Shown one piece after another: positions 12,001 to 54,900 of a stretch of DNA of 64,000 nt. Under the pieces are notes generated by a model. That model saw only the letters and a list, made by a program, of their open reading frames with translations, searched no databases and was not told where the DNA came from. The stretch is taken from NCBI GenBank assembly GCA_947846985.1, contig CANTUZ010000005.1, forward strand, positions 53,409,389-53,473,388, written 5' to 3'. Position numbers and translations under genes: made by a program. The stretch is from Fratercula arctica. Taxonomy: Eukaryota > Chordata > Aves > Charadriiformes > Alcidae. Numbering within the stretch: position 1 is the first letter of the stretch; the number at the start of each line of letters is the position of its first letter.

Positions 12001-12894
12001 TACACGGGTCTGGAGCAAAGCCTCAAGCAATGCCACATTCACTAAGCAAAATTCTCACGCAAGTAGAGTACCATTGTATCAACACTTATTTTGCTGCCTT
12101 ACTATCACATTTTACACTAGCAGTTGACATGTGTGTCATCCTTCACCCAATGGCCTCAAACGGGATGGCAGGGGAGAGGCGAGGAGAAGCACGAACCGAG
12201 AGCACAGCGCTATCCCACCGGCGGCAGGAATATTCCAGAGGCAGGCGCAGCACCTACAAAGCTCCCCAAGTTTCTCCAGGTACACCACGGCAGCACCGAC
12301 ACGGAGAAGGGCAAGACGGAACCCCACCTCCCGGGGCCGGGCCGAACGGCCGGCTGCCCGAGCGGGACCCACAGCCAGCGGGTGCGGTACCCCTCGCACC
12401 GGCCGGACCCCAGGTCCCGCACCGGCTTCCTCCGTGAGGCGGCTCCCACAACCCCCCGGCCGAGTGCTCCGCGGGGAGCGGCTCCGGTGCCGCCCCGTCG
12501 CCGGAGAGCCACGCCGCACCGGGCTGCGGAGGGGGCGTTAGGGCAGGATCCGACGGCGAGAAGCGGCAGAGGCGAGGCCGCTGCCGGCGCGCCGGACCGG
12601 GGCCCGCCCGCTCCCCGGAGTGGCACGAGAAGGGCCGCTCCCCACGGCGGGAGGCCTTGTGAGGCGGCGGGGGCCCGCACCCCGGCCCCGCCGCAGCGGC
12701 GGAGCTGCGGGCTGGGAGCGACGAGGCGGGAGCGGGGGCGAGCCTGCCCACCGCCGGCCCGGCGGGGCGCGCACCCGGCCCCAGCTCAGGCAGCCCCGCC
12801 GCGGGGGCGTCGGCGGTCTTCGCCCCCTCCCCTCTGTGGCCGTGACACTAAGCCCGGCCCCCCTCCCGGACCACGCTCCCCGCGGCAGCCTCAC
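1..12894 (-). other. Non-coding; presumed intron 1 of BTBD7
   Basis: I found no exon, RNA gene or recognisable transposon here on either strand. Open frames are short and unlike known proteins. The composition is AT-rich, with homopolymer A runs such as 5,445-5,460 (16 A) and 6,325-6,339 (15 A). It is called an intron only because the CpG island to its right carries a minus-strand splice donor at 12,895/12,894, and because BTBD7 lies head-to-head with UNC79 in mammals. No BTBD7 coding sequence (its paired BTB domains) is visible, so the first coding exon would lie left of the window. It could instead be intergenic. Confidence 0.45.
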
Positions 12895-13000
12895 CTCCGG
12901 CAGCCCCTCGCCGCCGCCATCCTCCCCGCTCAGCACCGCCCGCTCCCCCCCGGTCCCACTCCGGCCGCCGCCATTTTGATCCAGAGCCCCGAGCTCGCCC
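12895..13000 (-). other. BTBD7: Putative non-coding first exon of a minus-strand gene (BTBD7 by synteny)
   Basis: Read on the minus strand, the sequence CCGGAG followed by GTGAGG puts a strong splice donor at the 12,895/12,894 boundary. A YY1-like AAAATGGCGGC element at 12,978-12,967 would lie at or just downstream of the start site. The 5' end is not fixed by the sequence, so 13,000 is only an estimate. The presumed exon has two ATGs. The first, at 12,974, opens a frame of 14 codons that stops at 12,930. The second, at 12,920, runs open into the donor. BTBD7 is a BTB/POZ-domain protein linked to epithelial branching; none of its coding sequence is present, so the name is inference from gene order. 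Confidence 0.4.
12964..12978 (-). promoter_or_regulatory. YY1-like site, minus orientation
   Basis: On the minus strand this reads CAAAATGGCGGCGGC, close to the AAnATGGCGGC form of the YY1 site often found at the start of CpG-island transcripts. Its orientation agrees with leftward transcription through the donor at 12,895. Confidence 0.5.
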
Positions 13001-13042
13001 GGGCAGGGGGGGGGCGGGGGGAGGGGGGAAGGAGCGGGCACC

Positions 13043-13054
13043 GCGCCTGCGCAG
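13043..13054. promoter_or_regulatory. NRF1-like site
   Basis: GCGCCTGCGCAG differs slightly from the palindromic NRF1 consensus GCGCATGCGC. It lies between the two oppositely oriented YY1-like sites, where a shared bidirectional core would be expected. Confidence 0.5.
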
Positions 13055-13074
13055 TGGCGCTGCGGCGCCCGGGA

Positions 13075-13080
13075 CACGTG
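13075..13080. promoter_or_regulatory. E-box CACGTG
   Basis: A perfect CACGTG (USF/MYC-type E-box) lies 20 bases to the right of the NRF1-like site in the centre of the CpG island. Confidence 0.4.
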
Positions 13081-13090
13081 GTCCGCGCGG

Positions 13091-13140
13091 TGGAGGCGGG
13101 AAGGGGAGGGGAGGGGAGGGGAGGGGAGGGGAGGGGCGGG
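13091..13140 (+). repeat. GGGGA pentamer tract, G-rich
   Basis: Consecutive GGGGA units run through about 13,102-13,136 with a G-rich lead-in. Many closely spaced runs of four G make a G-quadruplex on the + strand plausible. The tract lies inside the presumed bidirectional promoter and, as a short tandem repeat, is likely to vary in length between individuals. Confidence 0.75.
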
Positions 13141-13189
13141 GCGCGCGGGTGCCGCCCGCTGTGGGCGGGCTGTGCCTGCGGGGCCGCGC

Positions 13190-13200
13190 GAGATGGCGGG
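13190..13200 (+). promoter_or_regulatory. YY1-like site, plus orientation
   Basis: GAGATGGCGGG on the + strand resembles the YY1 AAGATGGCGGC element. It is the best sign of a rightward start site in this island, which would feed a non-coding first exon of UNC79. No convincing splice donor could be fixed downstream. Confidence 0.35.
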
Positions 13201-16200
13201 CCGGGCGGCGGGAGTCCTGTCAGAGCTGTGGTGTGGGAGCAGGGGAGGGGGGCGGCGCCGTGCGGTGTTACCCGTGGCTAAGGGGAGCTCACGCCTCCGG
13301 GAGGCTCCCGGTGAAGGGACCAGAAGGCGTTACTCTTGAGAGCCTTCGCGGTTTCCACTCAGCCCCGGGCTTTGGGGGGGCCTCACCCGCCAAGCGGCAA
13401 AATGGAGGAGGGTGGGCAGGGTGCCGTGGGGCTGCCCGGGCATAGGGAGCCCAAAGGCCTGGTGTCGTGAGGCAGAGCTGGGACCGCAGGCCAGGTGTGG
13501 CCCTGCCGCCAGTGCACGCGTGCGTGTTTTGCTTTGCGTGACAGATCTCACAGGTTTGTTATCCCCAGGTACAGAGGTGTTTGCAGCGTAAGTGGTTTGT
13601 CAGCACATGTTCTTTGGCCTTGAGACTTCCTTAAGCTGCTTATATTCAGCATATGTTTAGCTCCTTGCTTTGAGTTACAAACAGGCCACAGTCAGATTCT
13701 AGTTTTACTGTTCACGCCAGGAATCTATACTGTTCACCTGGAAATAAACTCCCACCATCTTCCCCATTTCTGATAACCGCTCTCAGCATCGGGAATCAGT
13801 ATTTCACACATCTAGGTGAAATACCACTCCTGCTGTATTTTCTTCAAAGAAAGGTGCATATCGGTACAGTAAGGATCACAACATACTGGCCACCATGTTT
13901 ATAAGGTCACTGTTTTATAAATCAGAGAAAGTGACCTCAAAAAAATCAAAAGTTTTATTAGAACAATAAAACCACTTAAGTAAACTAAACTACTTGTGCT
14001 TTCTAAAAGAACTAAGCACCGTGTGTCTATCTATGAGAAAGTCTGAGAAAAGAGTTTCATGCAAAGGCCAAAAGTCTGATGAATTCACATGTCAGAAAGT
14101 CTTCAGCAAGCTGAAAGCCACATCTGTGATCATTCTTGGTGGGTAAAGGCAAGCTCCGACTGATGATATCCCCTCCTGACTTTGCTGACAGTCCATTTCT
14201 GGAGGGAAGCGTTCCTCCCACTTGGCATCACGCTCTCCTCCAACCATCTCTGTAATTAACTTGCCCGAATGCAGCAGACCTCCCTAACTACCACTTGGCA
14301 TAGCATCCCATAACGCTGAGCAGCTTACCAAGAAGTTAGGAAAGAAACACCCTCTAATGTATTTGTCCACGCTGTAGGGTGTTTTCTAACCGGTTGCGGC
14401 CTAAAAATGGAGGAGAAACATAGTTTGTTGGGCTGATGGACAGAATTTTTTACTCCTTGGGGGTTTAACTGTCTTAGTTATTGATACGGTCTCCAATATT
14501 GTAGTATTCGAGAGAACCACAACCTTTGTCTTCCATATCCGCACAGAATGAGAAGAGGGAGTTTTTATAATTGCAATTTAATAGCTTAAGTTCACAGGGC
14601 CAGGGTTATGCTTGTATCTGTTCAAGGGGGACCATTTTCTGTAAATATTGTGTCTTTGCAAGTTGTTGTTGCTGTTGTCGGGAGAGCTAATAACACTGAC
14701 TGGCCTCTGAGCTGTTGCCTGCTAGAGCCTTCCCATCTTCTACTTCTGTCTCTTTCCTTGCGCCTGCCCTAAACTGCTTTCCATTCCCTGCTGTTAGGAA
14801 CCACGATCATGGAATACCACATACACAGCATTCAGCTTAGTTCTTTTTTACGCTGTTTTTCTGTAGAAAGGCAGTATATATGATCATATTGCCTGCCTGC
14901 GCATGTATGGGTTTAGCTCTATGATGTCTGTGCTAAAAATGTTTTAACTCATTGATCTGTTTCTCATTTGGGTCCTTGTAGACACTGCAACTACAGAAAA
15001 GGCTTTGTTTGTTTTAGCTATCAAAGTCCAGCAACCAACAGACACAAACCTGTAGGAAACTACACTGCAGTACTTTTAATGCACATGGAATTGTTAATTT
15101 AAATATATCTGTTAGGAGAAATGGTTGCAGCCGAGGTGCCTAAAGATCAACAGGGTGAGACAACCCCTGCCTCTATTTGCCATTCATGATTTATAATATC
15201 ATTGTTACAATTTTAGCAGTGGCTTGCCAGACCAGCATAGAAATAAGAACCAGTTGAAGCTGAATAAGTAAGATTCAGGTCACAGAGCTTTTAGACTGAG
15301 GGGAAATAGGGTGCCAGCTTGGTTTTCAGGTGATGGGAACTAGTTATGAATTTGTTGCCAAAGTTCTGTAGGTAGGTGAAAAAATCCATTCTTCCCTCCA
15401 GCGAGCCTCGCTCATAATCTTACAGGTAGCGAAAATGAGAAGAAGGGATGGAAAAGAAGAATGGATGTTTGCTTTGTTAGTGTTTTTTTATATTCTAATA
15501 TTATAAACCCACGTGTAGTCAAAATAGATGGTTAGATTGAAGTACCAAGATCCTGCTCACCAATAATCATCCTTTTAGCAGCTAAAATAAACCTCTCTCT
15601 TATGACTCAGAGACAAACGGTATGTTGGGTAACAACTTGAGGAGACATCTGGCAGGCTGAAGTGAGGACGGCCACCATGTGCTTTCACTACAGGCTTTTT
15701 AAAGCATAGAGGTCACCCCTTGACTGCAGTGTCATTACCTCTGAGGACTGTGTGGTCTCATGGGCTAGACAGCTGTGAAGCGCGCCAAAAGTAAACTGAC
15801 CAGCTCCTTCTGCCACATGGGACCTTGGTGCAGGAGACAGGTTATAAAAAAATGAGTTACAAACCTTGCTGCAGAGGAGTGGGAAATGGAAGCTAATTGC
15901 ATTTATGTGCAGGTGAATATGTTTTCTGAGATGAGAGGACAGGAGATTCACACCATCTGACAAACACCCCTAGAGCACGTGCACACACATCACTTCCCTG
16001 GTTATAATCCTCATACTGTGCTCTCGGAAATAAATTCATCTTCCATTTTTAGCAGGATTGAGATATATTTGGTTTGACTGATCTAAAGTAACCGCCTGAT
16101 GTCCTAATGAGCGAAATCCTACATATGCCTTAAGTATTGTAAAATGCCATCTCTTTACAACAAAGTACCGAATGAGATACTGCCTGAGCCACACAACGGT

Positions 16201-30800: not shown

Positions 30801-31824
30801 TGCAGAAGTAACACATTTTATACAGATGTGCGTAGACTGTCGGACATCTGATTACTATTGGTGAAAGCTGACTAGTTATATAGTTTGCAAGCTGAATTGC
30901 TTAATTAGCGTGGTGCTGGTCCTGGGCTAATAGCCCCTAAACTTGGGCTTAGCTCCGCAGCACCGTAGCTCTCCAGCATCCACCCAGAGGAGCAGACACG
31001 TCCCTCTGCGCCTGCCCAGCTCCTTCTGTTCTTAAATAATCTCCTACCGTCGTGCTGATAATTTCTACCTTTGCCTGTTACCCTGTCACACATTCTGCTT
31101 TGATGCTGGACCCAGGCAGGTGGTTTGATGTTTCCCTGCTGTGGACGGCTGCTCTCGCCGCAGGCTGCTTCACGGCTTCTTTGTACACCTGGTTTAGCGA
31201 TGTTTTGGGTAGGATGTGGAGGAAGGAGATATACTCTGCAGTGAGGGGCAGGGAAGTATTTTATTTGAGGTATTGGTCATTTATGGGTGAGAGCATTTTT
31301 TGGATGAAGGTGGTAAGTGAACTGCAAGTGTGGGCAAATGAGAATTTCAGAGAGTATGTAATTGGGGGTGCAAATAGTTTGTGTGGAGAGGCACATGCAT
31401 ATGAGTATAGGGAAAAAAAAGACTGTTAAGGCTCTAGTAGATGGGAGGACAGACAGTTGTCTCCATTTCGCCTCACAGCATCATCATCAGCAACAGACTC
31501 CTCCCATCTGCTGGGCTCAGCAGCATCACTCAGCGAGCCCGTGGGAGGTGGCTGCATCACCCCAAGGTGCTCCTGCCCCAGAGAGCAGGCACATGCTCCT
31601 GCTCCCACTGGGGCTGACCCAGGGACAGCAGCTACTCAGGATATTTTGGTTTGTGTTGGTGCTTCTTGCGCCCAACTTAAAAATGAAGGGACCTGACTGC
31701 TAAGCAGAAGGACTCCTTGCCTTCGTTTGATAGAATTCAGCATCCTACAGGCTTTGAGCAATAGCAAATAGCAAAGGCTGGTCAGGATACCCCAGCTCTG
31801 CTCTCTCCTCACTGGGATAAAACA

Positions 31825-31932
31825 ATGGGTCCTATAACGCACCATGGATCCCGACTCTTCCGCTTCGGGTCTGCCAGTTGGAGCAGTCGCTGCATCCACA
31901 GCTCCCCACCTGAGGAAAAAGTGGGACTGGTG
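31825..31932 (+). CDS. COX8C: COX8 exon 1 (presequence and mature N-terminus)
   Basis: Thirty-six codons from ATG 31,825 to a strong GTGAGT donor at 31,933. A second GT three bases earlier (31,930) would drop one Val without changing frame, but the later donor gives the same spacing as mammalian COX8A. The ATG at 31,844 has a better Kozak context (CACCATGG) but is out of frame with the COX8 reading. Confidence 0.87.
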
Positions 31933-32863
31933 GTGAGTTCTGTCTTTGTGCCCTCACTTTTCCTTTCCTCACCCGGACCTTAGGTGGGAGTCCTACTCTT
32001 CTCAGAAGAGCTTCCTCTCGCTGTTCTCTTCCATATAGACAATACGGGTTTTCTTCATCCCAGCTAGAAGCCAGCTCTCCCCAGGAACTCCCCTCCACTC
32101 CTGGCAGAAGTTCCTCTCCTCCCACCACTTAGACGGCAAGTTTGTTCCCGAGAGGAAGGGAACACTGCCACAGCATCCTCCAGAGACGTGCGTCACAAAA
32201 TCCCATTTCTGTCCGGTTACGAGCTTTGATTATAGTCCCCAGCACAAGTACTCCAATATGTGATTATAGAAGACTTATAACTAAATTTTACCAGCAATTC
32301 TCCCTATTATATCAAGTCCCAAGTCCCAACCCAAAGCTCTTGTATATGATTAGTGGTGAGCTGCACTACTGTAACTATTAAGCAAATAATACTGTTTCTA
32401 TAAAGATTTTTATTCATAAAAAGCTCAAGAAATAGGCAAAAAAATGTACTGAATCTGTAGGAAAATAAGAAATTTTGCCATCTCTTTTAATGTGTCTTTT
32501 ATGCTTTTAAATGTGTCTTGTATAAGCATGTTTGTGCATGACATGGACTAAGATAATTTTTTTCCAGCTGCCATGGGTTACTAGGGTTCCTAGTCCAAAT
32601 ATGTAAAATAATCCTCTGTGGATTATTTTTTCCGTTAGAATCTGTCACGTCTCCGGGATTATAGCTGCAGAAGTTCAATAATATCACACAATTTGGTTGG
32701 CAATAGACTGCTTACCCTGGGAACATTCCAGTTTCTTTAGCTTTATTTAACCTTATTTCCTTTCATTTAGGAGACAATCATTGGATTCTCAGCATTTTCA
32801 CTGGCAGTTCTTGGACCAGCTGGATGGTTCGTGTGCCACCTTCCAAGCTATAAAAAGAAATAG
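31825..32863 (+). CDS. COX8C: Cytochrome c oxidase subunit 8, two-exon gene (COX8C locus)
   Basis: Subunit 8 is a small single-pass subunit of respiratory complex IV in the mitochondrial inner membrane. Exon 1 (31,825-31,932) and exon 2 (32,771-32,863) join in phase 0 to encode 66 residues. Residues 1-23 form a presequence rich in Arg and Ser with no acidic residue. The mature part starts near IHSSPPEEKVGLV, which matches the start of mature mammalian COX8A in both length and pattern. A transmembrane helix (about residues 37-57) and a basic end, SYKKK, follow. The exon boundary is where COX8 genes usually split. ATG 31,825 is the only in-frame start after the stop at 31,762. The symbol follows position, since mammalian COX8C lies at the start of UNC79; by sequence it resembles COX8A, so the isoform name is uncertain. 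Confidence 0.88.
31933..32770 (+). other. COX8 intron
   Basis: An 838-base intron running from GTGAGT to a pyrimidine-rich TTTCCTTTCATTTAG acceptor. I saw nothing else in it. Frames on the minus strand (31,832-32,196) have no recognisable product. Confidence 0.85.
32771..32863 (+). CDS. COX8C: COX8 exon 2 (membrane helix and C-terminus)
   Basis: Thirty codons and a TAG stop. It begins ETIIGF, aligning with ELAVGL of COX8A, continues through the helix with the family's PAGW turn, and ends SYKKK. The matching position of PAGW and the basic tail make the family call secure. Confidence 0.9.
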   Translation, partial: ETIIGFSAFSLAVLGPAGWFVCHLPSYKKK

Positions 32864-32898: not shown

Positions 32899-32904
32899 AA
32901 TAAA
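32899..32904 (+). terminator. Polyadenylation signal AATAAA for COX8
   Basis: A canonical AATAAA lies 36 bases after the COX8 stop codon, so the 3' UTR is short, as expected for a nuclear-encoded small oxidase subunit. Cleavage would fall near 32,915-32,930. Confidence 0.75.
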
Positions 32905-35900: not shown

Positions 35901-37020
35901 TGGAAAGACTTCTTTGGAGATGTGCTGCACAGCGAGGGCGGTCAGGTGGACTCATGCTGGCAACCTGATGTACTGCAATACATATTTATCCTGAAGTACT
36001 CATTATAGCTCTGAGTAAGTAGAAGGAGAAGTTGCCATGGTGCCTTTCAGCCACTATATTGTCTCTATTCAAGAATGGATGCTCTGTGTGAGCTCACATT
36101 TAATTTAAGAGACCCACTAGTTTCTAGTCTTGGGCTTCTTGTCTTCTGTGTTCGTGTCTTAGCCTTTGGGCCACGATGCTGTAATAGGTTTAAGAAGGCA
36201 TTTTTTTTGACACTTGTCATTCTAATTCCAAAAGCATTCCTAACACAACAATGTGCTTTTACTTTAGCCATGTAGGTAGTTGGTATAGTCAATTCTGCAC
36301 AAGTCTGACATTAAAGGTAAGAAAAAAATTCAAGGTTTTTTTGGGAGATCTAATTCAGCATTCAGGGTTATGCTAATTTTCATAAACATGGCATGGTAAC
36401 TCTCAGAAATACTGTGCTGCTTAGATCGAGTAAAGCCAGTCTCTGATTTTATAATAGTCTTAGTACATGCTCATCAGGTGTGTGCTAGTTCTCTATGCAG
36501 GTCACCATTTATTTCTCAAAAATCGACTGCTATAGCAACAAATTAAGTATTTTGTTCACTTAGAGGCTAATGAGATTACTCTAGAAGAGAAATTGAGGGC
36601 ATTTATCAGAGATTTTTTTTTTACAGTGACAGATACTGACAAATGTAATAATAAAGCTAACATTCACAGAGTTAATTGAAGTAATTGTCAGAATAAGAGG
36701 AAAATTACAGATTTGTAAATACAACCAAATAACCACTGTATTTCCTAATGATTTTTTCCCCCTGAAGTCTTAATTATTCTAAATTGGGGAGGGAAAGAAC
36801 AAATATTAACATCACAAGCTGGCTACCCTGTTGGGATCACAGCACCAGCAATGAGACCCAGAGCTCTTTACTGCTCAGCCTCTCACTTTAAATCAACCCA
36901 AACCAGTGATGACTGAAATGCATTTGTCACATGCCAGATGGCATAACTGGTTGGTGGCTCCAGCCATGCTTCTGATCACATCACGATCACTTCTGCCATG
37001 ACTGCCAACATCTATCATTC

Positions 37021-37130
37021 TATTCTATTCTATTCTATTCTATTCTATTCTATTCTATTCTATTCTATTCTATTCTATCCTATCCTATCCTCTACCTTAT
37101 CCTAATTTCTATCCTATCCTATTTCCATCC
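37021..37130. repeat. TATTC pentanucleotide microsatellite
   Basis: Eleven perfect TATTC units occupy 37,021-37,075, followed by decayed TATCC-type units to about 37,130. The long perfect core suggests that the locus is length-polymorphic. Confidence 0.95.
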
Positions 37131-41884: not shown

Positions 41885-42049
41885 AACCCACATACAGTAA
41901 CTGGTTATAAAGTAAATATTTTCACAAATTCAGCCACTAGAATCTTCCAAAAATGCAGTTTTCCCTAGCATTGGAAGAGACCTTACTGCGAAGTAAAATT
42001 ACTGCAAGATAAATTAATCCTGTGTCGCTCAAACCGGGACATAAGCGAA

Positions 42050-42900
42050 GGATAAAGCGGAGCACGCAGGCACAGCCCCTGACAGCACCGCCGCCAGCCC
42101 GGGCCTAGCCCAGCGCTGCCCCTCCTGCAGAGCCATGGCGGCGGGCCGGGGGGGGTGGGCGCCCCCCCTCACCAGCCCCCAACACCCCCGGGGGCACCGC
42201 CGAGGCCCGGGTGAGCCTCGTCAAAATCTTCCGGCCCAGCGCTAACCTCCCTTCAGGGCCGTCCCCCTTCAAGACCACCCCCGTCCGCGGCCGCCAGACG
42301 CGCTTTCCCTTTAAGAGCCGGTTCCCGCCCTTCCCCGCCCGCCGCTCCTCGGCCCCGCAGCCTTGCGGCAGCGGCACCGCTGCTGAGGCGAAGCCGCCGC
42401 CGCTGCTTTCACCGCGGCCGGCGCTGCTGAGGGGCAGAGCGCGGGGCGGCAGCATGTCTACCAAGGCGGAGCAGTGTGAGTGGCGGGGCCAGGCGGCTGA
42501 GGGGAGCGGGGGAACGGACACGACCGGGGGGCACCTTCCCATCGATGGTGTTGCCTTGGTGCCGGCCGCCCCGGCGGGGTAGCGCCGCCCGGCCTCCTCC
42601 CGCGTTATGTGGCGGCCGCGTTGCAGCTGGGGGAAGGGGAAGGGGAAGGGGAGGCGGGGGAGGCTGCCTTCATTCTGGCTCTTTCTGTCCCGGCCGCTGC
42701 TGAGCGGCTGGTGGCGGCGGCCGTCGGAGCGCCGCGGGGAGCCCGGCTGCCGGGATGTCAGGAGCGGGGAGGCGGCGGGTTTGTGCCTGAGGGGAAGAAA
42801 GGAGGGAGCAGGGCGGAGATGGAGAGCGCCGGCTTGGCCCTCGGCCCCGCGGCGGGAAGAGTCTATCCATCCTGCCCCCTCTGTGCCCTGTCCCAAAGGA
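42050..42900 (+). promoter_or_regulatory. UNC79: CpG island around the UNC79 start codon
   Basis: CpG-dense, GC-rich sequence without a clear TATA box surrounds the first UNC79 coding exon at 42,454-42,475. A transcription start inside the island would make it a UNC79 promoter in its own right. Alternatively the coding exon is reached by splicing from the 13-kb island, and CGGCCCCGCAG ending at 42,360 is a possible acceptor. An upstream ATG at 42,135 opens a 35-codon frame that would precede the true start if transcription begins further left. A GGGGAA tract lies at about 42,629-42,660. Confidence 0.8.
42454..42475 (+). CDS. UNC79: UNC79 coding exon 1 (residues 1-7)
   Basis: Only 22 coding bases, MSTKAEQ plus one base, followed by a GTGAGT donor at 42,476. 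The ATG has an acceptable context (GGCAGCATGT). Splicing to 47,543 completes Phe8. This exon is too short to be found by open-frame length. Confidence 0.93.
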
Positions 42901-45900
42901 TGTGCCCACCTGAGACAGACCAGAGGTGACCCATGCGTTGCCATCTTGAAGATGCTCTTGCTGTGAGAGGGAGGGAGAAGAGAGGTGTGCTGTCGTTCTT
43001 GCTTGTGGCGTTTACCTTTTGGGTGAATGTAAGCCTGGTGTTACCACCTTGCCTTGTGCGCCCACACGCCTGCCAGGTGCAGCCCCCAGAGTGCCCCAGC
43101 AAGACTCCCGGGGGGGACATCCATCCCCCCGCCCGGGGCCTAGCCTGCCTTCTGGCAACCGTGGACCTTTTAACCACCTTGTTGGCTAGATCCCATCGGG
43201 GCAAAATCAGATGGCATCATGGTGGTTGGGACGTCAGCAGCTGGGCCAGGCCAGTGTTCCCCACTGTTGTTACTGCTGGTAACAACTGGTGCATCTACAA
43301 GAGCCCTGGTGGGAGGCTTAAAGAAAAAGACCAGGGTAGCTGAGCTTGTCTGCCTTATCAAAGCTGTTTTTTCTCCTGTCATGGTCGTGAGGCAGGCAGT
43401 CTGTGACCAGGAGGTTGGACTGATGTTTGTCGTGATGACATGGTGGGATCTGACACTTTAGGGGCTGAGACTTGCTGTCTCCTTCCTCCAGGTCACTGGG
43501 AAGGATCCCTGTATTTATATATACCTGTGCTGAAATGATCTAAGGAAAAGAATACTTGTAATTTTTTTTTTTTTTCCTTTAGGGTTTACTGCTTATTTAC
43601 AGTGATGGATGGTGTTGCTTTTAAAATATTACGTGGTTGCTAATTTATTGCTGTGGGGATGCAATTCTGGCCTCATAAATAGAGACACAGTGTTCTGACC
43701 GTGCAACAGCCCTGTAGTGTGCAGCGTTCGGATCTGTATTGCTCTGTTCTTTCTGCCTTCCCTGCCTGAGTTTTGTAGTTGTCTCTTCTCTCTTGTGATA
43801 CTTATACATTAATTATGCTTTTTTCACACTGACATATGGAAGAATTTCTGCTGCCTTTTGTCCCAACCCTGCCTTTGGCATTTTCTTCCTTTTCTGTTCT
43901 GCCTTGTCTGTTCCTCCGTTCCTAATGCTTTTGGTCTGCTCTGTTTGAGCTTCTCTTTCACATTTTCTCCTTAGCTGTTTTTTCTTTTCATCCCCTTGTA
44001 CTGTTCAAGACACTGCATCTTGGCCCACCATGTCCCTGTTGCTATTTTAAGATTTACTTGGGAGTCCAGGTTTCAGATCTTTCTGCTTCCTAATGTTCTC
44101 TTTCGTGATGCTCCAGGTAGAGTATTCAGTTAATGGACATATCCTGCGTGTTCTAACCTACTGAATGTATTTTGTTTACGAAGGCTGCTTCCCTGACTAG
44201 TTTTTATGACATTACCAAGTGTCTTTGTCTCTACATAACTTCAAGATTCCCTCACCTGCAATTTTTGACAAATGGTGGTGGACTTGGACAAGGATTATAT
44301 TGATGTGCACACGTCACTGTTAGGCAAACCTTCAAACCCCAGCTGTTGCTGCTGTTGCTTCTGCCCTCGTTGACTGCCAGGCAAGAACCAGAATGTCTCG
44401 GGAAGGAGTCACAAGTCATAATGAATCTCAGTTTACCAAGAACAACAGCAAAACACTATGAATGAGGAAACAGACTGATCAGAGCAGAAGAGCAAAAAGG
44501 CGCTGGTCTAAACATGAATCTGTGGCCACCCCACAGCTCTTTGGGAGGTTGTATGAACAACAGGTAAAATGGTGGCAATCTGGGAAATCATCTCGAAAAG
44601 CCTCTTTTTTGTGACATGCATCTTGTGTCTCATACCGTAGGTATTGACAGTGACTTTCATCATTCAACTTATCACAGCATGCCTGAGGTTTCTGTTATAC
44701 TCAAATAAAATGAGTTCTATTTCACCTTAAATAGCAGTAATTGGTGTTTAGTTGTGGTAAGTAATGTCCTGGGAATGCCTGATACCCACTCTGTTATTCT
44801 CGAGGACAATGGAGCAACCAAGACCATCTTTAAAGACTTCTGATGGTTTTCCTCTTGATTCAGTCAATGCTTACAAGGGGACTAGGGAGTTTAGTTAGGT
44901 CTGTGGAAAGCTGAGAGAGATACCCAGCAAAGCACTGTGGAATAACTTTTTTTTTTTTTTTTTAATTTGTTTTACGTGATGACCCTATGACAATGGCTCA
45001 GTACTTCCAGAGTGGCATCACTTTTTGAAGTGTATCTCTGGGTGCTCAGAAACTCAGAAAACTGGGTCATTCATACACTCTTATAGCTTGAAAGGTGGCA
45101 AAGTTTTGCTCTAGGACTTTTCTTTGGAAGGTTCTTTGTGTTCTGGGAGGCTGTGCTGAAATTCTCAGTGTTCTTGGAAACAGAACTGAGGTGAGGTTAA
45201 AACCTTTAGCCTAAAGCTAATGTCAATATTTAGGCTTTATAAATAAGTTTTCTGTTTTGGTATTTTGCCTGATGCAATTGCATGACAATGCTGATTAATA
45301 GAAATAAAAATATTTCCTTCTTTATATAAAAAAGTGATTCTATATATTTGATACTCTTTATTGAAAGTAAATAGTTATACAGAGGCAGACAATTCTCTGA
45401 AATACACCTAGACCTGAATTCTGACATGATCTTTGGCATTTTGTTAATCCAATTCACTTACCGATACCTGACAGCAAAATATGGCAGCCACAGTAAACTG
45501 TGCATCTTGCTGTGAATTGTTCCTTGTTGGGTACTGTGAAATGAGGTCTGTTTTCTTTGCAAATATGCCTGGCCTCATAGTCGTCTTTTTTTTTTTTTTC
45601 TCCGGCAATAGAAAGTAATGTCACAAAATACATTTATGAAGTAGTTCCTTTCTCAATCTAATATAATCTAGATTAGTTTTTATAGAGGTCTTCATGACCC
45701 CTATAAAAGTGAGGAAATACAATTAAAGTTGCTTATGCATCCTTAGTTTATTACTTCTGCATGTGCATGATGACAGTGTCCCTATTAGCATTTTAACTTG
45801 CTGATTTCCCATAGACCCCAGCCCTGTTCAGTCACACGATGGCTTTCTCCCTGTGATGGAGCAGGATGATATTGTGAGGGAGACTTTTGTCTGTAGAAGC

Positions 45901-48900
45901 TTCACTTTCTGCAGAAATCGGGAGGGTTTGGTCAGTACAGCAGGAAATGGGAGAAAGGATGATCATGATGAGGGCAGTTGAGAGCTGAAAGACTGGGCTT
46001 CTTGTCATGCAATTCAAGCAAACTGTGTTCTTTGCTTGATGACTATTTGAGTGTTCCTCATTTTATGGATAACTGACTTGAAATTGTCAAACCTCCTTTG
46101 TTGTTTGACAGACCACTCAAAGGTGCTTTTGTTTACTAGAGGTAAAGTCCAGTACATACTACCGTCTATTCTGGCAAAAATGGCTCTCAGTATCTCAAGC
46201 TGGGCCTCCAACAGCAGTTGCAGACACTTTTCTCTTGGTGTCTGTCCTTCATTTCTGCCCATTTTCCTGTAATATGGATACAGTACCACCCCTTCTCATT
46301 CAACTTGTCAATGATACAGAAAAAAAATCAGAATGCTCATGAAATGTTCAGATACAGCAGCAGTGAGAGGCCTAGGGATGTCTCTCAGGGGGACTTCATG
46401 GTATTCATTCTTTAATAAATGCTATTTGACAATGAGAATAAAACAAAGTATTGACTAATTGCTCGTTTAGGAAGCATGATTTATCTTCCACACTGAAGGA
46501 GCCCTGAGGGGAACAAGGTATATCTTGGTGTGGCGAAAGACTATCATAATCCATATGCCAAAGGCTGAGGTCATTCAGAAACATCTCCCCTTTTAACTGT
46601 CTATGACACAGTCTTGGTGTACTTTTAACATGATTAAGAGTTCCCAGCTGGCTCTGCTTTCGTTGGGGCTGTGTCCGCACAGAGTGATGCGATGAACAAC
46701 TGCTGAGCAGTCTGGCTGGAAGCGCAGTTGAGCTGGTGCAACCCTCTGCCACCACCAGTGCACTCTGTTTCTCAGCAGAGCTGATGAGCCCGAGCAGAGC
46801 AAAATAGAGTTGAGAGGCTGTCTTGTGCCATGCGGGCAATGTAAGGCGTTGCAGCTATGGTGCATAATCACTTTTTTCCAATACTGAACAAGGATCTCTA
46901 TTAAAAAATAAGCCTGCTGTTATTTCTAAAACAACTAAAAATGGTTTCAGTAAAGGTGTAGAGCTGCTACTGCTCTTTGAAATGCACTCACCTGCTTGAT
47001 CAGACTTCCTAAGGTGCTTAAATAAACAGCACAGATCTTTTCATATCTTTAATTCATTGCATGAAGCAAATGTATGGTCTGAAGTAAATCACATAAACTC
47101 TCTCTGTCTTAGCTTATATCTCTGCTTTGGCTGTGGAAATACTTCTCTGTCTCACATCAACCTCCTGTGATCCAGTGACTCATTCATTATAAATGAATCT
47201 CCAGATCTTTGGAGACACAGAAGTGCAGATTTTTTTGTTGTTGTTTTGTTTTATTGGCTTTTTTTTTTTTTTTTTTTTTTTTAAATTTCCTAGCACGAAC
47301 TTGGTCTAACTTGGCATTCACTTCTGTGCCTTTCCCTTGACACTCTTGCACTGGAGTGTTCAATTTATTCAGTCAAAATAGAAGGAATGGAGAGACTTTT
47401 CTCTGTGTGTTTTTTTTTTTTTTCTTACAGTTTAATTATTAAATTAAAAAAAAAAGAAATGGTAGGAACAGATGTGATTCTGGCAAAGTCTGCAAGAAAC
47501 CTAAATGAAAGTTTCTGTGTTTGTTTTTTGTCTTTCATGTAGTTGCTTCCAAAATCCGTTACCTTCAGGAATACCATAACCGGGTTCTCCACAACATTTA
47601 CCCTGTGCCCTCTGGAACTGACATTGCAAATACTCTGAAATACTTTTCTCAGACATTATTGAGGTAAGTTTTAACTAATGCTCTTGAAGAAAAAAGAGCT
47701 AAAGAATTGTAGGGGGTATTGATTGACTTTGAATTGGTTGCAAGATTTAATGGGACAATGCTCAGCCAAAAGGAGTCAGAGCATAATTTAAGAAAAGAAT
47801 GTTATGAATTAATCTCTTCAGTGGCTGTTGCCCAATTTGCCCAGTTGAGCTGCTTATTGAGTGGCTGATTCTAAAATAAACTTGGTTGATTACACATTTG
47901 CTTGGCCCTCCTAAGACTTAGCTGAATGCACAAACGTGCTGAACTTGTGAAGAGTGGAGTTTGTGACCTACAGAGTTTTAGATGTGTATACTGATGGCCT
48001 CCTTGGCAGTCCTGGTGCCTCAGGATCCTGGAGCAATGAGCCAGATGAGCAGAACTAGGTTCTTTCTGTGCCATAGTTCAGCTGGCTGTCAGGTTTGGGT
48101 TCTGGTTCAGTCCCTTAGAATAATGTGAGTAGACACAAAGTTTGTATACAGATCTGGATTTGGATGGCAATGACAGATCATAATTGTTCTGCCCTGGGGT
48201 TTTGATTTAGTACAATATTTAGTAAAAATATATAGTACAAAATACCATTTTGAATAGGAAATACTACCTCTTGTCTTGCTAAAAAATTAGGAAAAATTGT
48301 GAGACTTAATTAGGAATGATATACATTGCACAGTGCTACCTAGTGGATTTTCAAACTGTTTTTAAAGTGGTTTTGACAGTAAAGAGGTGATTTTTTTTTT
48401 TTATTTTTTTATTTTTGTCTGCCCAGGTTTTGGCTCTCACTAGTTTTCACACACAGAAAAATGCAGTTAAAGCTGCATTTCTATGCATAGCTTCCTGGTT
48501 TATACCTGGAAAGATTGTCCCTACTGTCAGAAGCTGTTTGGAAATACAGCTATTTGCCTTATTTGATGAGGAAACATTAACAAAATACAATTAATCCATA
48601 TATTTGTACACATACCCCTATGATGTATACAAGTTGAGAAGCAAGATTTTAAACTTGAAAGAATGACAGTAGTTCATTCTAACATTCATTTAAAGCGCAT
48701 GGGATATATCAAAATTCCTGGCCCTGTTTATAAGAAAGAAAGATACACAGACAGAAGTACTTGTTGTCAGTGGAACGCATGTCCGCTGCAAACTTAAAAA
48801 CCTCCTGTTTACTTTTGAAAATTTCAAGAGCAGAGTTGTTTAACCACTGTGAAATTTGTTTCCTTCATCATTTAGTGTTGATGAAATTTATGGCAACCAG

Positions 48901-51900: not shown

Positions 51901-54900
51901 TAAATTACACTTCTCTTATAAGCACCTTAGCAAGAGTTTAGCTTACTTGTGTAAATTGTTGAATTGACTTGTGAGATAAGATATATCTGTGCTAAGGTGA
52001 TTATATGATAGGGATTTCTGCATTGTTAAAGAGGACAGAGGTTTCCAGGAGTGCTCCCTCTTGACATAACTCTGTTTTCATTAGTCAGTGGAAATTTTAA
52101 TGCCACTGACTTGTATTTTGTAAGTTTTAACACTGACCTTGGGAACAGAGTTAAACCAACAGCATCTGCTTTTGGAAATCCCAACCACTGAGAGGTGCAA
52201 AACGTGCTTTAAAAAAAAAAAAAGCAGTATGTGTGGTTCAATATATTTAAAAGATGTATTGTATTTTATAGGCACATATGAAGGTTATGAACTAATCCTA
52301 TAATTGCCTGATAACTAAAATATAACACTGCTTAAGTAACAATTTATTTCTATTTAAAATAGTGGGGTTTATTTTTTTTAATAAATTAGATTAACATGTT
52401 TACAACCATGTACAACGTTCTTAAAACAACGTAACAAGCTGGTTGACGTATAGCCTCTATTTTGATTCCCACTAAATCCTTTTTATTTTTTGAAATTATC
52501 TCTCCTTTAGTTTATAGTGAGTTTTGTTGAATAATAACGTAAGTAACAGCAGGAATGTATGGTAACATACTGTCTGATCTGCAGTTACATAATTGGTCTT
52601 GCTTGCTTAGCCCTTAGATTTTTGAAGGTAACTATTTTACCCAAGGAGTGTTTGTATTCATAAAGTAAAGTGTTTCCTCCCTAAACATGGGCAAAATTAT
52701 AAACACACATAAACAACCATTATCATTAGCTCACAAACATATGCTAAAGACCATCTACTATATATTATTTTATAACTTTTCCAAATGTAGTTTAGTTAAC
52801 ATTTTAGAAATATTATATTATTTCTAAATCCATGTGCCTGTTTAAACTTCATTATCTCAAATGATACTGAGTGAGTGGTCATGAAACAGTATCATAAAAT
52901 ACATACAGACATTATTTTAATGCAATAAACATGTGATTTTTAAGACTATCTTAACAAACACACATGTTTATTCTTTGCTAAAACATGTTTCTGCAAGTGC
53001 CACACCTATATTTTACATGTTTTCAGTCAGTTGGTTCAAAAGATTATAGGGGGGGAAAAAATAAATCTCTCAAAATCCTCAAAAATCTCAGAACAAAATA
53101 CCAGCCTATTTTGATACAGCTATTTTTCCATAGCGAACACTTTTAATTCTCAGAATTTTTCTTAACTGTGAAACATGGGTAGGGCACTGAAACATGCATT
53201 TTTATATTTTTGCTCCTTATGAACCAGATAACACATGAGATGCAATGAAACTTTCCTAGATGTCAATTTTTAATTCTCTTACCTTGAAGCATGAAAGTAA
53301 ATGGTTGCTAGATTTGTAGACACACTGGTTTCGGTAGCGATTGCATCTTATGTGGGATGTATCTGGTGTTTTATTATTTGTTTTATAGTGTCATTTCAAT
53401 GTAATGTGCTGTTCTTTGTGTCTTTGTTGTCTCTTTTTTTTCTTTGTCCCCCCAACAGCATTTTGTCCCGCACAGGGAAGAAGGAGAATCAAGATGCCTC
53501 CAATTTGACAGTGCCCATGACCATGTGTCTTTTTCCTGTGCCATTCCCACTCACCCCATCTCTAAGACCACAGGTCAGTTCCATCAACCCTACTGTTACT
53601 CGCTCCCTCCTTTACAGCGTCCTGCGAGATGCTCCATCTGAACGTGGCCAGCAAAGTCGTGATGCTCAGTTATCAGACTACCCATCTTTGGACTATCAAG
53701 GACTTTACGTGACACTGGTGACACTGCTGGATCTAGTTCCCTTGCTACAACATGGTCAACATGGTAAGCAGGCCCTTGAACCCTTCCAGTACGCTTAACT
53801 TCAGTGCTGTGAATCCATGAGTGATGCATAAATGCAGTTGAAGAGATGGGCCTAAACTGACCTGGATCTGGAATTCAAATCTCCTGGGATGTGTTTATAT
53901 CCAAGTGTTTGGTTTGACTTTCTTAAATAAAAGATGTTTTTTTGTTAACTCTGGATTTGGGTTTGAATTCTGAGGTTGTCTGATTTCTAGTGATATGCTG
54001 GTGGTATGTAACTATAATACAATGGTATGTAACAAAAATAATACAGATGGGTCTAAAAAAATCTGGATTTTGAATTTGAATCTGCTGGGATATCCTCAGA
54101 CCGGTCTCTTTGGGGTGGCTCTCTTAAAAGGGCAAAAATTGCTTGCAAATGTGTATCTGGCCTATAATGAATATGCAGATTGAGTGTTTTGGTGAAGGTC
54201 CATCTCTAAACAGAACTTAGTATGCATTTAATTGAAGAAAAAACATGGTAATGGTGATTTGAGATGGCTTTAAAATGTTCCTGGGTAAAAAGATAGCAAT
54301 ATCTGTGTCTGACTTACAGAAAAGCCGTATATTCTTGTGTTTTGAATGAGTTAATCACAAAGGTTTTTTGTGACTGTATTGTATTTATATTGTTTTCCCT
54401 CAAGTTCTGCATATGTCTGGCTTGTTAGTCTGTAGCTTTCCATACTGGGATTCAGGAGCCCAGTGTTCTCTCTGTGTTACAGAAGCCAAATACTAATTTT
54501 CACCATGGTATCGGGGTGTATTACTCACATAGTTCGGTATAGAAGGATTGTTGTCAATCTGATAAACTGCGGAAATTCTTTAGGATGAAATTGTTTCTGT
54601 TAAATGCTGAATTCCTTTTGTGTTGGCAGCAGCATGTTTTGAATCAAAGACTACTGCGCTAGGAAATGGTATGATCATGTAAGAGGGGGGCTGCTAGCAA
54701 ATTATAGACTTGTCAACTTCAGTTTCTAGAAATGGTGGAGTTAATTATCAAAACAATCTTTTTCTAAATAGAATCATAGAATGGTTTGGGTTAGAAGGGA
54801 CCTTAAAGATCATGTAGTTCTAACCCCCCTGCCATGGGCAAGGACACCTCCCACTAGACCAGGTTGCTCAAAGCCCCATCCAGCCTGGCCTTAAACATTT

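What the first reader, a model, noticed from the sequence alone, without database searches (positions are those of the whole stretch)
31825..32863. A hidden two-exon COX8 gene lies between the BTBD7 and UNC79 promoters
Neither exon gives a long open frame, so frame-length methods miss it. Joined at GTGAGT and CATTTAG sites in phase 0, they give a complete 66-residue subunit 8: presequence, IHSSPPEEK mature start, PAGW in the membrane helix, KKK tail, and an AATAAA signal 36 bases later. If UNC79 is transcribed from 13 kb, this is a gene nested in the same-strand intron of another.
Basis: partly seen in the sequence, partly recalled or inferred. Interest (0 to 1): 0.75.

Follow-up and report, generated by a model that had tools for sequence, protein, structure and literature searches.

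The report
Two-exon COX8 gene beside UNC79

Summary
Exons 31825-31932 and 32771-32863 join in phase 0 to 66 residues. The product matches Pfam COX8 at 58.7 bits, cut-off 24, and aligns with human COX8A from its mature first residue. Relatives occur in an owl, two pigeons, a finch and a sea turtle (83, 86, 83, 74 and 70% identical). A profile built without the window's protein finds both exons at 70.6 and 67.2 bits; the best other frame reaches 10.5. BTBD7 reads leftwards on one side, UNC79 rightwards on the other. Held papers place mammalian COX8C beside Btbd7 and at KIAA1409, which is UNC79 (recalled), so by position this is the COX8C locus. By sequence it groups with teleost 'COX8A' (96/99), not with mammalian COX8C, though that union is not rejected (p 0.067). 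Nesting inside a UNC79 intron, and expression, could not be tested. Whether this genome has another COX8 stayed open: 24 genome requests did not complete. Ordinary gene, apparently little annotated in birds.

The parts
31825..31932 (+). COX8 coding exon 1: presequence (residues 1-23, inferred) and first 13 mature residues
   Evidence: HMM of relatives 67.2 bits; mature start aligned to chain 5z62_M
31933..32770 (+). intron, phase 0, GTGAGT...CATTTAG, 838 bases
   Evidence: splice-site ranks; same position inferred from records of other COX8 genes
32771..32863 (+). COX8 coding exon 2: membrane helix with PAGW, KKK tail, TAG stop
   Evidence: HMM of relatives 70.6 bits; Pfam PF02285 on joined product
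32899..32904 (+). AATAAA, possible polyadenylation signal
   Evidence: function inferred
12051..13550 (.). CpG island, presumed BTBD7 promoter (BTBD7 coding exons lie left of the window on the minus strand)
   Evidence: BTBD7 exons in L001, L003, L004 (with a recalled human sequence)
41901..43000 (.). CpG island holding the UNC79 start codon
42454..42474 (+). UNC79 first coding exon, MSTKAEQ (match to recalled human N-terminus)
   Evidence: splice-compatible with the next exon (read by eye)
47545..47661 (+). UNC79 coding exon
   Evidence: tblastn with recalled human sequence, 39 of 39 identical
53457..53762 (+). UNC79 coding exon
   Evidence: PDB chain 7wji_B 'Protein unc-79 homolog', E 6.8e-61

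Best explanation
This is an intact nuclear gene for cytochrome c oxidase subunit 8, at the position of mammalian COX8C between BTBD7 and UNC79. Shown: a two-exon reading frame, membership of the COX8 family, relatives with a kept frame in birds and a sea turtle and more distantly in crocodilians, and the neighbouring genes. Inferred: the mRNA is spliced at 31932/32771, the 66-residue precursor is imported into mitochondria by its basic presequence (net charge +3, no acidic residue), it is cut before Ile24, and the 43-residue remainder sits as a single helix in complex IV, as COX8A and COX8B chains do in solved structures. By position it is the orthologue of mammalian COX8C; sequence does not settle that.
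For: Pfam COX8 E 5.2e-16, 58.7 bits against a cut-off of 24, model positions 1-43 of 43. Human COX8A chain E 5.6e-8, aligned from its first residue; 12 of 23 listed PDB sequences are COX8 chains, the other 11 unrelated proteins at E 0.067 or worse. Relatives: owl 83%, pigeons 86 and 83%, sea turtle 70%, Gouldian finch 74%, Crocodylus 62%, Alligator 53% over the MAFFT alignments. The mature part is identical at 36 of 43 sites with the turtle and 38-40 of 43 with the owl and two pigeons. Both exons stand far above every other frame. An intron at one position in the wider family is inferred from records that read into or out of it: turtles P0005-P0007, and, typed by their sequence, P0071 (A-type), P0072 and P0053 (B-type). 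BTBD7 is on the minus strand to the left, UNC79 on the plus strand to the right. In held papers, a mouse gene list ends Itpk1, Moap1, Btbd7, Cox8c (PMC4519886, passage), and one human CpG probe is annotated to both COX8C and KIAA1409, the older name of UNC79 as I recall it (PMC5763425, passage).
Against: No transcript data. Identity to primate COX8C is only 7-9 of 43 mature residues (3 rows), lower than to mammalian COX8A (16-21, 11 rows) or COX8B (15-17, 8 rows). The tree puts the sauropsid proteins with four teleost 'COX8A' proteins (96/99) and not with COX8C. Holding the sauropsids with COX8C, apart from the teleosts, costs 8.2 log-likelihood units, p-AU 0.067. The Crocodylus record lacks the conserved Glu at the exon junction, and the Alligator record starts differently; whether these are real or prediction errors is unknown. 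No other bird locus could be compared at the DNA level.
Confidence: 0.94

Rival explanations
1. It is a decayed or processed pseudogene copy of another COX8 gene.
For: Small two-exon frame without expression data; the presequence is less conserved than the rest (16-17 of 23 residues identical with the owl and two pigeon proteins).
Against: It keeps an intron at the family position, high-ranking splice sites, an intact frame, and a mature part 36 of 43 identical to a sea turtle, which I take to need long-lasting selection on the protein.
Confidence: 0.03
2. It is a chance join, or a cryptic piece of a UNC79 5' transcript with no COX8 function.
For: It lies on the same strand upstream of UNC79; each exon alone is short.
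Against: Family match over the whole mature protein; relatives collinear over all 66 residues in owl and finch; no comparable hit elsewhere in the window or in its reversal.
Confidence: 0.01
3. It is a COX8 gene but not the orthologue of mammalian COX8C: sauropsids and teleosts share a separate COX8 lineage, and mammalian COX8C reached the same neighbourhood independently.
For: Tree grouping with four teleost 'COX8A' proteins, 96/99, and low identity to COX8C.
Against: Same neighbours, BTBD7 and UNC79. The branch to mammalian COX8C is long (1.99 and 0.97 changes per column) and so is the one to sauropsids plus teleosts (1.13 and 0.75), so the tree is unsure. The AU test does not reject a union (p 0.067). 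Only 43 columns.
Confidence: 0.15

Closest known systems
Mammalian COX8C (COX8-3)
   Same: COX8 family gene next to Btbd7 in a mouse list and sharing a probe with KIAA1409 (UNC79, recalled) in human (PMC4519886 and PMC5763425, passages). Described in mammals by Huttemann et al. 2003 (seen as a citation and in review passages of PMC5448071).
   Different: Only 7-9 of 43 mature residues identical to three primate COX8C proteins. The window keeps PAGW, HL and Y where those have PAAY or PALY, NL or NI, and F. Mammalian COX8C was found highest in testis (PMC5448071; PMC8322354); expression here is unknown.
Mammalian COX8A and COX8B
   Same: Same Pfam family, single helix with PAGW or PSGW, intron position inferred to be the same.
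   Different: 16-21 and 15-17 of 43 mature residues identical respectively; human COX8A lies on chromosome 11 (a cited title in PMC5448071).
Bird and turtle proteins without a COX8 name at NCBI (Bubo scandiacus, Patagioenas fasciata, Columba livia, Chloebia gouldiae, Caretta caretta)
   Same: Same protein, 70-86% identical, collinear over nearly the full length.
   Different: The Patagioenas and C. livia records run 7 residues past the window's stop; presequences differ.
Teleost proteins labelled COX8A, and Crocodylus porosus COX8A
   Same: Four teleosts and the sauropsids group together, 96/99.
   Different: Labels assigned by others; their chromosomal neighbourhood was not tested here.

Membership tests
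COX8 (Pfam PF02285) | profile match above the curated cut-off over the whole domain | tested here: met
   58.7 bits against 24, positions 1-43 of 43
COX8 (Pfam PF02285) | single membrane helix with P-A/S-G-W, then H-L..Y and a basic tail | tested here: met
   alignments; highest 19-residue hydropathy 1.85 at residues 33-51; no structure was predicted
COX8 (Pfam PF02285) | cleavable basic mitochondrial presequence before the conserved I/V-H-S | tested here: inconclusive
   23 residues, net +3, no acidic residue; import and cleavage not tested
COX8 (Pfam PF02285) | two coding exons with a phase-0 intron just before the conserved Glu/Asp | tested here: met
   window; other members inferred from protein records reading through or into the intron (P0005-P0007; P0053, P0071, P0072)
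COX8 (Pfam PF02285) | assembly into complex IV | not testable with these tools
   needs biochemistry
COX8C orthologue | position between BTBD7 and UNC79 | tested here: met
   for this genome (BTBD7 by a recalled human sequence); mammalian position from passages
COX8C orthologue | sequence clade with mammalian COX8C | tested here: inconclusive
   not grouped in the best tree; union not rejected, p-AU 0.067; 43 columns
COX8C orthologue | testis-enriched expression | not testable with these tools
   no RNA data; in mammals per passages of PMC5448071 and PMC8322354

The most novel reading that the evidence does not exclude
In birds, and perhaps all sauropsids that keep a COX8, this UNC79-linked gene is the only COX8 gene, so it would serve every tissue. 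Mammalian COX8C would then be the fast-evolving, testis-restricted descendant of what was the general subunit 8. Teleost genes now labelled COX8A would belong to the same lineage. All 11 records named as sauropsid in the three protein searches look like this type or a part of it: 7 of them by the tree, the other 4 fragments by eye.
Probability: 0.3. Interest if true: 0.5.

Novelty: new member of a known kind. Interest (0 to 1): 0.22.

Why it matters
If the positional orthology holds, COX8 at the BTBD7-UNC79 position goes back at least to the common ancestor of mammals and sauropsids, and two short exons are enough to make a conserved respiratory gene slip through annotation. If it is the only COX8 of birds, it would change how the isoform is read: an old general-purpose subunit that mammals turned into a germ-line one.

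Tried and rejected
Pseudogene and chance join were rejected. An RNA gene was looked for: 0 Rfam matches at gathering scores in the window. The gorilla COX8C record P0060 was set aside as intron evidence because its insert does not fit a simple alternative acceptor. None listed a paper on COX8C in birds by title or start of abstract: for example 'COX8C' with 'chicken' gave 5 papers, none with a bird in title or start of abstract (listing only), and 'COX8' with 'avian' and 'gene loss' gave 1 fish paper (listing only). A paper titled as reporting loss of COX8 in Iguanian lizards (Bar-Yaacov et al. 2013) was seen only in reference lists and is not held, so its content was not used. PMC5608375 and PMC7999090 were looked into by passage and were not on point. 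The search of the window's own genome for further COX8 genes did not complete: 21 requests by family and 3 by protein. An early 18-base pattern search of that genome with my guess at codons gave 0 matches and says nothing, since the window itself uses other codons there. No structure was predicted.

Full report
What was checked. The window is G000:C5:53409389-53473388 of an unnamed assembly of 1.21 Gb in 28 contigs. Exon 1's open frame runs 31765-31980, and exon 2's begins directly after the acceptor TAG, so a search by frame length would miss both. The splice sites rank 14 of 3471 and 16 of 4468 in the window under simple weight matrices whose frequencies I recalled.

Identity. Pfam COX8 matches over its whole length, 58.7 bits with a cut-off of 24. 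In the PDB sequence file the best match is human COX8A, E 5.6e-8, aligned from the first residue of the mature chain; 12 of the 23 listed sequences are COX8A, COX8B or COX8 chains and the other 11 are unrelated at E 0.067 or worse. Protein searches passed 7 of 8 candidates (window protein alone), 72 of 389 (with mammalian A, B, C and turtle) and 73 of 120 (sauropsids and one teleost). Relatives were found in Bubo, Patagioenas, Columba livia, Chloebia and Caretta. Partial or mis-spliced records came from three other turtles and Columba guinea, and more distant ones from Crocodylus, Alligator and many teleosts. Over the MAFFT alignments identity to the window is 83, 86, 83, 74 and 70% for the first five, 62% for Crocodylus and 53% for Alligator. 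The Crocodylus record lacks the Glu at the exon junction and the Alligator record starts differently. The Columba guinea record P0136 reads exon 2 in another frame; the window's own shifted frame gives nearly the same letters, so that exon is present there too. The Patagioenas and C. livia records read through the place of the window's stop for seven more residues. From the matches to bird proteins and the genome size I infer a bird; no tool named it.

Controls. A profile from four relatives (P0001-P0004), without the window's protein, scored all 2881 translated frames of the window (15 residues or more): the two exon frames at 70.6 and 67.2 bits, the next at 10.5. In the reversed window (2842 frames) the best was 7.4 bits.

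Neighbourhood. UNC79 exons on the plus strand lie at 47545, 53457, 57310, 60418, 61819 and 62737, with MSTKAEQ at 42454 inside a CpG island of 41901-43000. The largest of them was checked without recall against PDB chain 7wji_B, 'Protein unc-79 homolog', E 6.8e-61. BTBD7 exons lie on the minus strand left of the window, in L001, L003 and L004; this rests on a recalled human sequence. So the COX8 gene lies between the presumed BTBD7 promoter island at 12051-13550 and the UNC79 start. Whether UNC79 also has a 5' exon near 13 kb, which would make this a nested gene, cannot be told from the sequence. In humans one methylation probe is annotated to both COX8C and KIAA1409, which is UNC79 as I recall (PMC5763425, passage), and a mouse gene list ends Itpk1, Moap1, Btbd7, Cox8c (PMC4519886, passage). 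One row of a human linkage table, the row before chromosome 15, holds COX8C, UNC79 and BTBD7 (PMC6834745, passages). So the neighbourhood is known in mammals.

Which COX8. By position the gene is COX8C. By sequence it is not obviously so: of 43 mature residues it shares 36-40 with the four sauropsids then in hand, 26 and 11 with two fish, 16-21 with mammalian A (11 rows), 15-17 with B (8 rows) and 7-9 with primate C (3 rows). In a tree of 29 rows and 43 columns (the window's protein and 28 rows chosen by me out of 137 proteins in hand; fragments P0005-P0007 and P0136 left out), sauropsids and four teleost 'COX8A' proteins form one side of a branch, 96/99. Holding sauropsids with mammalian C instead, apart from the teleosts, is not rejected, p-AU 0.067. 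Both the branch to mammalian C and the one to sauropsids plus teleosts are long. A review states that COX8-3 has higher replacement rates than the other two isoforms (PMC5448071, passage). I take positional orthology as likely and unproven. Records that read into or out of the intron suggest that A-type (P0071), B-type (P0072, P0053) and this type (turtles P0005-P0007) share the intron position; this is inference from protein records, typed by eye.

How it works. Shown: the reading frame, its conservation and its family. Inferred from the family: a presequence of 23 residues with net charge +3 takes the precursor into mitochondria and is removed before Ile24, and the remaining helix lies in complex IV. 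[quoted passage not shown] Whether the bird gene is testis-bound or general is open.

Verdict. What is left of interest is whether birds have any other COX8.

Noticed in passing
41901-43000 and 42454-42474: The UNC79 start codon sits in its own CpG island, so UNC79 may have a promoter downstream of the COX8 gene rather than, or as well as, one shared with BTBD7.
   Followed up: partly
32861-32863: At the window's stop codon the Patagioenas fasciata and Columba livia records read on for seven residues; the two crocodilian records also have a longer tail.
   Followed up: partly
31844-31936: A second ATG in a CACCATGG context lies 19 bases after the COX8 start, out of frame, and opens a frame of 30 codons on the genomic strand whose stop lies just past the donor site; no relatives were sought.
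   Followed up: no
37017-37088: Tandem array of the pentamer ATTCT, 14.4 copies, 98% matches.
   Followed up: no
teleost protein records among P0065 and P0074-P0137: Teleost proteins labelled COX8A or COX8B were drawn in by the sauropsid UNC79-linked COX8; the four of them put in the tree group with it rather than with mammalian COX8A. The labels may not reflect orthology.
   Followed up: partly
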